From Phlebiopsis flavidoalba (Eukaryota; Basidiomycota; Agaricomycetes; Polyporales; Phanerochaetaceae): 64,000 nt of DNA. The translations under genes and the position numbers were made by a program. The notes under the pieces are model-generated. The model ran no database searches. It was not told where the DNA came from and saw only the letters and a program-made list of their open reading frames with translations. Below, in pieces: positions 13,701 through 17,125 of the stretch (position 1 is its first letter; each line of letters opens with the position of its first letter). The DNA is taken from assembly GCA_035772785.1 (NCBI GenBank), contig JAOCPU010000045.1, positions 1-64,000 on the forward strand. The letters run 5' to 3'.

Positions 13701-14918
13701 TCGTAGAAGGTGGTCTTGGCCCAAGCGGGGGTTCGGGCGATGAACTAGGGTATTGGGCGAAGGATGGTTCGGGTCCGGTCGCCGCAGGGGGTAATGACCG
13801 CGCGAAATGAAAAGCGAGAACTAGTTGCTGGAGGTCCCTGCAGACATTGTAACTCGGAGTCCGGGGATCGAGTACACCTAATACCATTCAGCTGATTGGA
13901 CAAGAGTGAGCGTCCATGCACAACGCTCTGGTAGGAAAAGAAGGAAGGCTGGACGGCGGCGTCGGGTCTGTCAGCGAGAGGAGAGCAAGTAGTCTCGTTC
14001 CCATCCCGCACCGGACTCCGAAAGCGCAGGCTTTCGGCCGGCGAATCGGACATCGAAAACAACGGATGTTCGCCGTTCGTCCAGAGGTAGGCTCGTAACC
14101 GCGTGTTTCCGCTCGTGAGGCACGTGGTAATCGCACACCGCGCCTTTTTGTTGGGTTGATGGTGGCGGCGTCGGAGTGCGAACCGTGCCAACTCGCTCAA
14201 GCCGTTATCGGCACGGCTGAATTTGAACGCGGGCTGGGAAGTTCCGAGCCTAGTCCAGAGGGTCAGGTGCGTTTGGATCATGACCGGCTAGTACTACATC
14301 GCGCGCACATGATCGTTAGTCTCCCTAGGCAGACTTTATATAATCGGCCTATGGCGAGCCCACTCTCGCCGTCGTATACATCCTTTCGCGGAGGCCCTGC
14401 TATCCTGGCCCTTCGAGCTCGGACATAGCGTACACCAAATTAAAATAAGACTATTCTGTGCATTTCCTTCGACTACCAGACTAGCCCTCTTGGAGACCTG
14501 ACCACTTTGCTATCCAACCGCTGTCCGGCGATATGAACGGTCGCGCCGCTCCGCTCAATGCCCCCCTCTAGTTTCAAACTGAGGTGATAATGTCCTAGCA
14601 ATAGTAAAATGTTGTGGAGAAAACACTATATAATGTCAGGACCCACCGGAGTTCTCGTGGCCGCCCAGCCCCAGTTTGAAGCGCCATGACTCCCGCATAT
14701 ACCCGGCACAGACTCCATATCCTACTATGTATGAGTTATTTTTATGTGAAATTTCCCTGATGGTTGCATCTGCACTGCTATCACGCTCCTTACTATGTCT
14801 TGCTCCCCTTTGGTGATCAGGGCAGTATTGATAATATGGGATTCCTGCTTTCTCTATCATGCTTGTGACCAAAGGAAATTTTCTGGGGGTAGTATAGTAT
14901 ATGCGACGAATTTTTGGT
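10746..14918. other. no recognisable gene
   Basis: About 4.2 kb. A stretch at roughly 10860-11033 stays open on the plus strand and runs into a GTAAGT donor-like sequence, so an exon remnant is possible, but I do not recognise it. A long minus-strand frame at 13745-14281 has no family-like motif. No RNA gene was seen. Confidence 0.35.
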
Positions 14919-14923
14919 GGAAC
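14919..14923. repeat. target-site duplication, left (GGAAC)
   Basis: GGAAC directly abuts the left end of the TRIM and is repeated exactly at 15885-15889 after its right end. A 5-bp duplication is what integrase-mediated LTR-retrotransposon insertion leaves. Confidence 0.9.
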
Positions 14924-15140
14924 TGATAATAAAAGTGTATGCGCGGAGGGGTGGTGATTATCGTCTACACTTCGGTTGCCATTCCGTGTACATACAGGGG
15001 GTTTATATACACCAGAAACTATCTAGAATATTCCTACCGACCATATGGCGCGGTGGGCCTGCTTACCAATCCCGACGTCATATCCTATTCCAGAATCTTC
15101 CCGCACCCCACTTCCACATGCGCGGCTCGATATTCCAACA
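14924..15140 (-). repeat. 3' LTR of the TRIM
   Basis: 217 bp, matching the 5' LTR apart from two one-base indels. The same TATA-like sequence is at 15001-15010. It is directly preceded, on the minus strand, by the polypurine tract. Confidence 0.93.
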
Positions 15141-15149
15141 CTCCCCCTC
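15141..15149 (-). other. polypurine tract of the TRIM
   Basis: GAGGGGGAG on the minus strand, directly against the start of the 3' LTR, in the position expected for second-strand priming. Confidence 0.8.
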
Positions 15150-15394
15150 GAACGCGCATATCCCAGAACCAATTGTGAACTTCCGCTGTGGTCAACACCA
15201 GCCGGCGCCTATCCCACGCGAACATACCGTTCTCTCGCACTAAAAGGCCTCGGCTCGCATTCAAACAACTCCCCCTGAAGCACGGCATAGGCCACAATTC
15301 GTTCGATGACTCCCACTGGATCTGTTCTCTACACTTGTAGACACACAAGCGAGACCGAACGTCCGCGCGGCGCGCATCCGAAAACGGCTAAGTG

Positions 15395-15584
15395 GCGTAT
15401 ACACGCACAAACAAAGACCGCGACGGCGTAGAGACGCCCGAAGCGAAAGCGTAGAAACGCAGCACGGCTAGAAAGCCAACGCGGTGTAGACAGACACCAA
15501 ACGGGTAGAAACCCATCAACGATGCGTAGAAACGCACGGGTAGAGACCCAACGGCTAGAAAGCCAGGCTCGACGTAGAGACGCC
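15395..15584. repeat. array of ten mini-hairpins with a conserved TAGARA loop
   Basis: Plus-strand hairpins in order: GCG-TATACA-CGC (15395), GGCG-TAGAGA-CGCC (15425), GCG-TAGAAA-CGC (15449), GGC-TAGAAA-GCC (15466), GGTG-TAGACAGA-CACC (15483), GGG-TAGAAA-CCC (15503), TGCG-TAGAAA-CGCA (15523), GGG-TAGAGA-CCC (15538), GGC-TAGAAA-GCC (15553), GACG-TAGAGA-CGCC with one mismatch (15571). Stem sequence varies while pairing is kept, and the loop is nearly constant. Start-to-start spacing ranges from 15 to 30 and is often not a multiple of three. A repetitive peptide is therefore unlikely to be what is conserved, although the minus strand is open across the array. In the element's sense the loops read TYTCTA. 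The array fills much of the TRIM interior; its function is unknown. Confidence 0.9.
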
Positions 15585-15654
15585 GAAATGCGGGTGGTCC
15601 GCCGAAGTAGCGCAAAAGAGTGACAGTAACGAGAGAAGGGTACCGCCGCCCAAG

Positions 15655-15669
15655 GCGGGGCTCATAACC
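15655..15669 (-). other. primer-binding site of the TRIM
   Basis: The minus strand reads GGTTATGAGCCCCGC immediately inside the 5' LTR. Its complement, GCGGGGCTCATAACC, has the form of a fungal initiator tRNA-Met anticodon stem and loop with CAT in the anticodon. Priming by a cleaved half tRNA-iMet is established for copia; its use here is inferred from the sequence match. Confidence 0.8.
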
Positions 15670-15884
15670 TGATAATAAAGTGTATGCGCGGAGGGGTGGT
15701 GATTATCGTCTACACTTCGGTTGCCATTCCGTGTACATACAGGGGGTTTATATACACAGAAACTATCTAGAATATTCCTACCGACCATATGGCGCGGTGG
15801 GCCTGCTTACCAATCCCGACGTCATATCCTATTCCAGAATCTTCCCGCACCCCACTTCCACATGCGCGGCTCGATATTCCAACA
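15670..15884 (-). repeat. 5' LTR of the TRIM
   Basis: 215 bp, TGTTGGAATATC at its start and TTATCA at its end on the minus strand. It contains a TATA-like GTATATAAAC (15746-15755), a plausible promoter for the element. Relative to the other LTR it lacks one A in the terminal A-run and one C in the ACACCAG/ACACAG word. Confidence 0.93.
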
Positions 15885-15889
15885 GGAAC
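15885..15889. repeat. target-site duplication, right (GGAAC)
   Basis: Exact copy of 14919-14923, marking the right boundary of the TRIM. Confidence 0.9.
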
Positions 15890-17125
15890 CCTGTGCATCT
15901 CTTAGGGTGTAAATTGGTTCAACACGGGTGAACAAGGCTGTATTCTCTGCTCTATTTTCAGCACTGATGGAAAGGTCCCCGGCGATCCCTTCAATTCTGA
16001 AAAACTGTGAGCTCGACGAGGTATTAGATCACATACCCCTATATGATCCGCCACAAATTGTAATATTGCAGGGGATAGATTGATAGATGAAAGTAGTACC
16101 AGAAGCATCGTTGCTAGACTATAGCAACACCCGGTAAAGTGACGTAACGTTCCGTGACATGGCGTGATATAGCGTAGTGTAGCGTTAACAGGAAACGTTG
16201 GCGAACGGGAGAACGTGAATTTCACAACCATCCCACTGCGGAGATGGTAAGGCAGCCTACGCCGACGGAGAAGTGCCTCACACTGGATAAGAGAGTGAGA
16301 TGTGCCGTGGTCATGCATTCGATTCCGGAGGCAAGCATTTTTTTGTACGCACGGCGCACTTGCGCGCTCCGAAAAGTTAGGATGCGGGTTAGTAGTCTCG
16401 GAGGGTACTCAGGGTTTTGGGTTTTTGGGTTGCGGGTCTTAGGCTTTCGGGCCTTGAGTTTGCTTTTGGTCTAGGGCTCAGGGTCTCCAAAAAAGCACTC
16501 CGTTGAGCAGACTCACCCCATACAGGAGCAACACCAATTAAAAAACACAATTAAATCACAACTGTTTACACACAAATCAAAACATGCACTAAACAGCAGC
16601 TACAATATACCCAAAAAAGACAGTCAAAAATCGCGGCAACCACCACACGCAGCTCAAAACGCAGACCGCCACCGAATCCCGCGCCCACCACCGCGCCCCC
16701 TCGCCCTCCGACAGCTTATCGAGCTCCACCTCCACCGACGGCCTCACATCCACACATCACCCTCACGCTCTCGGCAGGCGTGCCCGCGAGCACGCGCGCG
16801 CTGGAGCGGCGCGAGGCTTGGCGCGGGCGGTATTTGAGTGCGTGCGCGTGCGCGCGGGGGCGAGCCACGAGCGGGGGGTGTGCGAGCGCACGAGGGATGG
16901 TGGGGAGGGAGACTTGGCGCGCGGGAAGAGCGCGGTGGTGGGCGTGAGCGGGAGGGAGAGGGTGCTTGTGAGGAAGGTGTCGGTGTGGTATTCCTTTGAG
17001 GCGCGGACTATTACGGCGGAGAAGACGATGCCCTGTGTGTGCCGTGATCATTAGCGAGGGGTGTCGCGTTTAAACTTGGATGGGGAAACTTACGATTATG
17101 GGGGATATCAGACCCGTTGGGCTGT
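15890..17125. other. no recognisable gene; G-rich telomere-like tract inside
   Basis: 16403-16490 is a run of GGGT, TTTTGGGT, TCTTAGG and CTAGGGCTCAGGG words that loosely resembles degenerate TTAGGG repeats. 16132-16190 is a string of diverged five-to-eight-base ACGT/AGCGT words. A GC-rich frame at 16818-17054 has no recognisable motif. No gene is supported. Confidence 0.4.

What the first reader, a model, noticed from the sequence alone, without database searches (positions are those of the whole stretch)
15395..15584. Ten mini-hairpins with a constant TAGARA loop and compensating stems inside a TRIM
Within 190 bases there are ten short hairpins whose loop stays close to TAGARA while the stem changes between GCG/CGC, GGC/GCC, GGG/CCC, GGTG/CACC and TGCG/CGCA. 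Both sides of each stem change together, which is the signature of selection on structure or of repeated copying of a hairpin-forming unit. Spacing varies (15-30 bases) and is often not a multiple of three, so a repeated peptide does not explain it. I know of mobile mini-hairpins and double-hairpin elements in fungal mitochondria, but not of such an array in a nuclear retroelement. Possible roles are a packaging or dimerisation signal, a binding array for an RNA-binding protein, or protection of the RNA.
Basis: partly seen in the sequence, partly recalled or inferred. Interest (0 to 1): 0.92.

Follow-up and report, generated by a model that had tools for sequence, protein, structure and literature searches.

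The report
Hairpin array in Copia RNA leader
A small parasitic retrotransposon in a fungus carries, right after its reverse-transcription start site, a row of ten tiny RNA hairpins with nearly the same loop but exchanged stems, which gene-bearing relatives also carry, and which may serve as a repeated landing site for the capsid protein that packages its RNA.

Summary
Ten mini-hairpins lie at 15394-15584; 0 of 1000 shuffles per strand reach their number, and of 2128 sampled 200-nt windows only those on the array hold four or more of one core. The setting needs turning round. The element (14924-15884; 5-bp TSD; LTRs without substitutions) is a Copia-type TRIM on the MINUS strand: primer-binding site matching a tRNA-Met anticodon arm, polypurine tract, relatives with copia Gag. 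The array therefore lies between PBS and gag in the RNA leader. The unit is a short stem closed by U-A over a YUCU loop. Five insertions carry it: three TRIMs and two LTR-leader-gag elements. Stems are exchanged in matched pairs; between C51 and C5 stems are 55/64, loops 44/49, spacers 14/46 identical. Two of eleven Gag relatives have frames reaching into the leader, and both are compatible with an array. Two unit words tested are not dispersed in the genome. Best mechanism (inferred, not shown): a multivalent Gag-binding packaging signal kept by gag-less TRIMs; MoMuLV's zinc knuckle binding UCUG in its leader is the nearest parallel. A second Copia family shows a five-hairpin array, not statistically secure. 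New variant of a known kind.

The parts
14924..15140 (-). 3' LTR of the element (217 bp), read on the minus strand TGTTGGAATATCG...TTATCA
   Evidence: 215 matches, 0 mismatches, 2 gap columns against the other LTR
15670..15884 (-). 5' LTR of the element (215 bp)
14919..14923 (.). target-site duplication GGAAC, left copy
15885..15889 (.). target-site duplication GGAAC, right copy
15655..15669 (-). primer-binding site GGTTATGAGCCCCGC, complementary to the anticodon arm of tRNA-Met (half-tRNA priming as in copia)
   Evidence: the 13-nt core occurs 18 times in the genome, 3 times in ARAGORN tRNA-Met genes, 15 times after LTR-like ends (judged by eye); 7 of the 15 lie just before a PF14223 gag match
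15141..15149 (-). polypurine tract GAGGGGGAG directly before the 3' LTR
15571..15584 (-). hairpin U1 GGCG-UCUCUA-CGUC (one G.U; CGCC in C51 and C1)
15552..15565 (-). hairpin U2 UGGC-UUUCUA-GCCG
15537..15550 (-). hairpin U3 UGGG-UCUCUA-CCCG
15523..15536 (-). hairpin U4 UGCG-UUUCUA-CGCA
15502..15515 (-). hairpin U5 UGGG-UUUCUA-CCCG
15483..15498 (-). hairpin U6 GGUG-UCUGUCUA-CACC (8-nt loop here, 6 in C51 and C1)
15465..15478 (-). hairpin U7 UGGC-UUUCUA-GCCG
15448..15461 (-). hairpin U8 UGCG-UUUCUA-CGCU (outer pair not formed)
15425..15438 (-). hairpin U9 GGCG-UCUCUA-CGCC
15394..15407 (-). hairpin U10 UGCG-UGUAUA-CGCC (other loop; outer pair not formed here, formed in C51 and C1; contains self-complementary GUAUAC)
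15334..15349 (-). possible eleventh hairpin CUUGU-GUGUCU-ACAAG (loop GUCU in C51)
   Evidence: sequence; for C51

Best explanation
The array is a structured RNA signal in the 5' leader, between PBS and gag, of a Copia LTR-retrotransposon lineage. The window holds a non-autonomous TRIM member on the minus strand. Each unit is a short stem (4-8 bp), closed by U-A, that displays a YUCU loop (UCUA word). What is held is the loop and the fact of pairing, not the stem letters or the spacing. Most likely the Gag protein (its relatives carry one CCHC zinc knuckle) binds the displayed UCUA words. Eight to ten sites side by side would give the avidity that selects this RNA for packaging into virus-like particles. 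TRIMs without gag and pol keep LTRs, PBS, array and PPT because these are what they need to be packaged and copied by Gag and RT supplied in trans. Shown: position, strand of the element, paired exchange, conservation against spacers, separate insertions. Supported but indirect: presence outside this genome (from open frames), selection at the RNA level. Inferred without direct test: Gag as the binder, packaging as the role.
For: Orientation: PBS matching tRNA-Met, PPT and 5-bp TSD, copia Gag PF14223 in C5 and C42 and a zinc knuckle PF00098 in C42. Five insertions carry the array: C45 (window), C51, C1, C5, C42. Paralogous covariation: fully Watson-Crick units 10/10 (C51), 9/10 (window), 10/10 (C1), 7/8 (C5), 5/8 (C42), permutation p 9e-5 to 0.015 by pair sum. 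On 18 distinct unit sequences 92.2% of 90 cells pair and 15 cells are changed on both sides; 0 of 500 shuffles reach either, and slid controls pair in 21-52% of cells. Strand sense: 23 G.U and 0 A.C among 184 stem cells read in gag sense. C51 against C5: stems 55/64, loops 44/49, spacers 14/46 identical. UCUA occurs in the loop of 42 of 46 units (counted from the list). Gag relatives P0001 and P0002 have leader-derived extensions compatible with 8 and 5 units in three frames; shuffled residues reach at most 4 and 2 in 300. The three TRIM copies, without gag, hold the array at least as well as the gag-bearing copies, which speaks against a purely translational role. Parallel: the MoMuLV NC knuckle binds UCUG in its leader, with several UCUG sites exposed on dimerisation.
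Against: There are no binding, packaging or probing data, and the gag frames of C5 and C42 are broken, so the cognate protein cannot be named. MoMuLV NC holds a G at the fourth place and did not bind its isolated hairpins; the word here is UCUA, in hairpin loops. Ty1 Gag, a Copia-group case without a zinc finger, binds RNAs with low specificity, though it prefers Psi RNA in competition. Loop motifs as packaging signals were judged unsupported in vivo for STNV-1. The leader of C5 does not fold more stably than shuffles (z -0.58), and 1 of 8 (C5) and 3 of 8 (C42) units are no longer fully paired. Fold stability and hairpin counts do not favour the minus strand (z -3.00 on plus against -2.32 on minus; 7 hairpins on plus against 6); strand rests on PBS, PPT, gag and wobble pairs. 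Two of five measures are not unusual. The covariation is mostly between paralogous units; at the three positions where subfamilies differ (U3-U5), unit reshuffling could replace substitution. TRIM and gag copies differ in age (C42 has 11 LTR mismatches), so the comparison of their arrays is confounded. No autonomous copy with pol was found among the best candidates in this assembly.
Confidence: 0.55

Rival explanations
1. The array binds a host RNA-binding protein (for example a pyrimidine-tract-binding type, motif recalled) and serves translation of gag, nuclear export or RNA stability, not packaging.
For: Loops are pyrimidine words repeated many times; in C5 and C42 the array lies upstream of gag, and the only AUG found between the start of the PBS and the gag AUG is the one inside the PBS.
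Against: TRIM copies without gag keep the array and hold an AUG inside it (positions 154, 158 and 161 of the C45, C51 and C1 leaders), which does not fit a role in gag translation; export or stability roles are not excluded.
Confidence: 0.2
2. No function: the array is a hairpin-prone repeat that grows by slippage or template switching, and pairing is kept because new units are copied as whole hairpins.
For: Units share flanks (GTTG...CGT) and some are identical (U2 and U7); units at U3-U5 differ between subfamilies as if reshuffled.
Against: Over six copy pairs between subfamilies stems are 78-86% and loops 85-90% identical, spacers 28-33%; stem order agrees at U1, U2, U6, U7, U8; TRF finds no tandem repeat; two unit words are not dispersed elsewhere: GCGTYTCTACGC 14 of 25 hits in the five arrays and 11 outside against 19 for the reversed control, GGCTYTCTAGCC 9 of 13 in the arrays and 4 outside against 3; compatible arrays are inferred for two Gag relatives from elsewhere.
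Confidence: 0.15
3. The array serves dimerisation or strand transfer during reverse transcription rather than Gag binding.
For: It lies near the PBS, where dimer and cyclisation signals of Ty1 lie. U10 holds the self-complementary GUAUAC.
Against: The YUCU loops of the other units cannot pair with each other, so an array of ten is not explained by kissing loops.
Confidence: 0.1

Closest known systems
Retroviral packaging leader with repeated NC sites (MoMuLV Psi, UCUG sites bound by one zinc knuckle)
   Same: Near the 5' end, upstream of gag; repeated short UCU-purine words; Gag relatives of this lineage carry one CCHC knuckle (for MoMuLV; here for C42, and by eye 10 of 11 proteins, P0009 ending before it).
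   Different: Here 8-10 near-uniform mini-hairpins display the word in their loops and the fourth base is A; MoMuLV has a single-stranded linker site and palindromic dimer hairpins, and NC did not bind its isolated hairpins.
Degenerate packaging signals of small RNA viruses (STNV-1, AxxA loops)
   Same: Short stem-loops with a common loop word, five putative ones in a 5' fragment (passages).
   Different: Motifs occur throughout that genome and the same paper weighs against them in vivo; here they are clustered in a leader with clear stem exchange.
Plant Copia BARE2, a gag-less parasite of BARE1
   Same: Gag-less element said to keep dimerisation and packaging signals and to be packaged (passages).
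   Different: No array of constant-loop hairpins is mentioned in the passages seen.
Fungal Copia-driven TRIMs (Helenus; TRIMs of Boletales)
   Same: Short LTR elements, 5-bp TSD, tRNA anticodon-loop primer incl. tRNA-iMet (passages); TRIMs reported in Boletales genomes (passages).
   Different: Helenus LTRs hold a tRNA-like sequence; none was found here.
Mitochondrial repetitive hairpin-forming elements (RHE, double hairpin elements)
   Same: Repeated short hairpin-forming elements (abstract and outline).
   Different: Those invade intergenic mitochondrial DNA; here the units tested are confined to one leader position.

Membership tests
[quoted passage not shown]
   LTRs 215/217 bp, interior 529 bp, TSD GGAAC; PBS; no PF14223 or PF07727 match listed at the window element
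Copia superfamily (as the mobilising lineage) | half-tRNA-Met PBS and copia-type Gag in closest relatives | tested here: met
Copia superfamily (as the mobilising lineage) | an autonomous partner with pol in the same family | tested here: not met
   none of the 23 RVT_2 matches lies beside an LTR match; both calls score best candidates only, so the driver is merely not identified in this assembly
Helenus-type TRIM | tRNA-like sequence inside the LTR | tested here: not met
   ARAGORN 0 genes in 14800-16000; Rfam 0 matches up to E 1 in 14900-15900
Retroelement packaging signal (Psi) | located between PBS and gag on the genomic RNA | tested here: met
   array between PBS and gag ATG in C5 and C42
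Retroelement packaging signal (Psi) | specific binding by Gag/NC and need for encapsidation | not testable with these tools
   needs protein and RNA experiments
Ordinary minisatellite | tandem units of one period, divergence without regard to pairing | tested here: not met
   TRF none; spacing 14-31 nt; paired divergence
Mobile hairpin element (DHE/RHE type) | units dispersed at many unrelated sites | tested here: not met
   two unit words only: hits outside the five arrays are isolated and near background (11 and 4, reversed controls 19 and 3)

The most novel reading that the evidence does not exclude
Copia retrotransposons of these fungi use a modular packaging code: a cluster of five to ten mini-hairpins between PBS and gag whose loop word is particular to each lineage (YUCU here; CAGGCGU in the L016/L024 family of the same genome) and is read by that lineage's Gag, while stems drift freely by matched changes. 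Gag-less TRIMs would parasitise a given lineage by carrying its loop word.
Probability: 0.3. Interest if true: 0.82.

Novelty: new variant of a known kind. Interest (0 to 1): 0.62.

Why it matters
How LTR retrotransposons pick their own RNA, and how tiny gag-less elements get themselves packaged, is little known (one of the papers seen says so of the packaged RNA of retrotransposons other than BARE). Here a candidate cis signal can be seen in sequence: a short, repeated, constant-loop unit, kept in TRIMs that have no gag or pol. It makes partner recognition testable with a roughly 190-nt RNA and one Gag protein. If the second family's array is real, loop words may tell which Gag drives which TRIM.

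Tried and rejected
Mobile mini-hairpins: not supported by genome-wide counts of two unit words. Minisatellite: rejected. Repeated peptide: rejected, because in P0001 and P0002 the compatible units fall in three frames and 7 of 9 spacings are not multiples of three. Known RNA family: none in Rfam. Helenus: no tRNA found in the LTR. RNase III-type AGNN tetraloops on the + strand (recalled motif): set aside, because wobble pairs point to the minus strand and the stems are very short.

Searches that gave nothing: Copia RT and gag peptides in viral contigs (none; one distant locus, L072, not used), PBS pattern in viral contigs, Gag alignment in viral contigs and genome contigs. So no DNA of the array from another organism was read; the outside evidence is from protein frames only, and only 2 of the 11 hits have an extension that can be tested. 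That test was designed after I had seen the two extensions.

Other Copia leaders of this genome (11 further leaders, 340 nt after the PBS): only L016 and L024 (3 hairpins of one core; 6 of 500 shuffles reach it in each) and L019 (3; 4 of 500) stand out, not secure over 11 tests. For the five hand-marked hairpins of L016 all 25 pairs form with G.U, but 8 of 120 permutations do as well.

Literature: the listings of searches (best 4 to 20 rows each of up to 57,600 papers) show no title or abstract start on constant-loop hairpin arrays in a retrotransposon leader; this covers only the held open-access library and those terms. Papers: PMC7599994 one section and passages; PMC3735527, PMC10886601, PMC6475782, PMC8396678, PMC5689174 passages; PMC2800124 abstract and outline.

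Full report
What is there. The window (contig C45 of a 36.28-Mb genome held in 129 contigs) contains a complete TRIM at 14924-15884. It has LTRs of 217 and 215 bp without a substitution between them (215 matches, 0 mismatches, 2 gap columns), an interior of 529 bp and a 5-bp target-site duplication GGAAC. Reading the minus strand, the LTR runs TGTTGGAATATCG...TTATCA. It is followed at once by GGTTATGAGCCCCGC, and the interior ends before the other LTR in GAGGGGGAG. The 13-nt core of that PBS occurs 18 times in the genome: 3 times in ARAGORN tRNA-Met genes, in the anticodon arm, and 15 times after what look by eye like LTR ends; 7 of these 15 lie just before a PF14223 gag match. That the tRNA is the initiator is recalled, not tested.

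The array. Ten units lie 86 to 276 nt from the start of the PBS. Each is a stem of 4-8 bp, counting a constant U-A pair, around the loop YUCU; U6 of the window has a longer loop and U10 another one (UGUAUA). Partition-function folding of the leaders (300 nt, gag sense) gives a mean pairing probability of the units of 0.90 (window), 0.86 (C51), 0.76 (C1), 0.54 (C5) and 0.47 (C42). Whole-leader stability exceeds shuffles for C51 (z -2.78) and the window (z -2.32 on minus, -3.00 on plus), not for C5 (z -0.58). Stability therefore does not tell the strand.

More than chance. For the five 340-nt leaders of this family 0 of 500 shuffles reach the observed number each.

Other copies. Searches of the genome (best candidates only) give five copies with the array: the window, C51:214534-215484, C1:2394422-2395443 (with an unmatched stretch inside), C5:689113-690678 and C42:80390-82083. 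LTR matches without interior hits lie on C19, C22, C98 and C129. The flanking 5-mers match exactly in C45, C51, C1 and C5, and with one mismatch in C42, so I take these as separate insertions. LTR mismatches are 0 (C45), 1 (C51), 1 (C5) and 11 (C42) (C1 not computed). C5 and C42 are LTR-leader-gag elements in which no pol match was listed: copia gag PF14223 is found in both and a zinc knuckle in C42. Their gag frames are broken. Such gag-only elements have been called TR-GAG in plants (recalled). The part of the TRIM between array and PPT (236 bp) matches only the three TRIM copies.

Paired exchange. Inner stems within one element are GCG/CGC, GGC/GCC, GGG/CCC and GUG/CAC. Fully Watson-Crick units: 10 of 10 (C51), 9 of 10 (window; the tenth G.U), 10 of 10 (C1), 7 of 8 (C5), 5 of 8 (C42). 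Permutation p by pair sum is 1.5e-4, 1e-4, 9e-5, 1.3e-3 and 0.015. The copies are related, so these are not five independent tests. Among the TRIM copies stems differ at 0 to 2 of 80 positions. On the 18 distinct 14-nt units, 92.2% of 90 cells pair against 72.6% in shuffles (0 of 500) and 15 cells are changed on both sides against 5.0 (0 of 500); two of the five measures (number of pairs with a double change, number of pair types) are not unusual (130 and 166 of 500). Units with loops of other lengths were left out of that alignment. Among 184 stem cells of all 46 units read in gag sense, 148 are Watson-Crick, 23 G.U, 0 A.C and 13 other. Wobble therefore points to the gag-sense RNA as the folding strand.

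Selection against drift. Between C51 and C5, first eight units paired by order, stems are 55/64, loops 44/49 and spacers 14/46 identical; over all six pairs of a TRIM and a gag copy stems are 78-86%, loops 85-90%, spacers 28-33%. At U3, U4 and U5 the subfamilies carry exchanged stems (GGG/CCC against GCG/CGC and the reverse): paired in C5 at U3 and U5 and damaged at U4; in C42 paired at U3 and damaged at U4 and U5. This is either compensated change or unit reshuffling.

Outside this genome. The nearest Gag proteins in a 5.8-billion set (11 hits) include P0001 and P0002, whose frames run into the leader. Their 88- and 50-residue extensions can encode 8 and 5 complete units, in all three frames. 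Shuffled residues give a mean of 0.53 and 0.25 and at most 4 and 2 in 300, and the remaining 265 residues of P0001 give 1. Eight is also the number of units in C5 and C42. P0003 is named a Phanerochaete sordida polyprotein, which suggests, no more, a fungus of that kind.

Mechanism. The unit keeps its loop and its ability to pair and lets stem letters and spacing go. That is what a protein that reads a displayed loop would require. The neighbours are PBS and gag, where retroelement packaging signals lie. Elements without gag and pol keep the array. Gag relatives of this lineage carry a single CCHC knuckle (by eye in 10 of 11 proteins; Pfam match in C42). For MoMuLV the single knuckle binds UCUG in the leader, and 42 of 46 loops here hold UCUA. 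I therefore favour multivalent Gag binding for packaging, at 0.55 for the whole statement; that it is a structured leader element under selection I hold at about 0.9. Against it stand the missing G, the low specificity of Ty1 Gag, the in-vivo evidence against a comparable idea in STNV-1, and the absence of any experiment. U10, with its self-complementary GUAUAC, could have a separate role such as dimerisation.

A second array. In another Copia family of the same genome (L016, L024; two copies found) the leader holds five hairpins with loop YAGKGCG/CAGGCGY and stems CGGUC/GGCCG, CAGUC/GACUG, CGGUC/GACCG, CGGCC/GGUCG, CGACC/GGUCG, all able to pair in L016 (one has a longer loop there). In L024 the first is CGGCC/GGCCG and the last has an extra base. 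Permutation gives 8 of 120, so this is a lead, and the predicted minimum-energy fold of that leader does not show most of them.

Verdict. The object is best described as a leader RNA hairpin array of a Copia lineage retained by its TRIMs: a new variant of a known kind (packaging-type leader signals).

Noticed in passing
L016 1180-1513 (minus) and L024 1501-1840: Leader of another Copia family with about five hairpins sharing a 7-nt loop CAGGCGT and exchanged stems, between PBS and gag ATG.
   Followed up: partly
L028 1501-1680: Leader with two hairpins GATCC-ATTGC-GGATC and GTCC-ATTGC-GGAC and a third imperfect one (TCC-AATAC-GGA); too few to judge. The related copy in L027 is interrupted.
   Followed up: partly
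L005 and L008 (C5:689113-690678, C42:80390-82083): LTR-leader-gag-LTR elements without a listed pol match; possibly a fungal gag-only class. Longest contigs of several Gag relatives are only 1.2-1.5 kb.
   Followed up: no
L008 1481-3200: By eye, the C42 copy differs from C5 by many small insertions that look like short local duplications, in LTRs, gag and array alike.
   Followed up: no
window 15252-15276 (minus strand): Inside the TRIM a second AGGGGGAGTTGTTTGAATGCGAGCC resembles the PPT-LTR junction AGGGGGAGTGTTGGAATATCGAGCC, perhaps a remnant of an older LTR start.
   Followed up: no
window 16402-16485: Degenerate telomere-like G/T-rich repeats (AGGGTTTTGGGTTTTTGGG...) at an internal place.
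   Followed up: no
L034 (C28:16107-16574): A copia gag with no match to the tRNA-Met PBS word in the about 1300 bases held upstream of its ATG; its leader or primer may differ.
   Followed up: no
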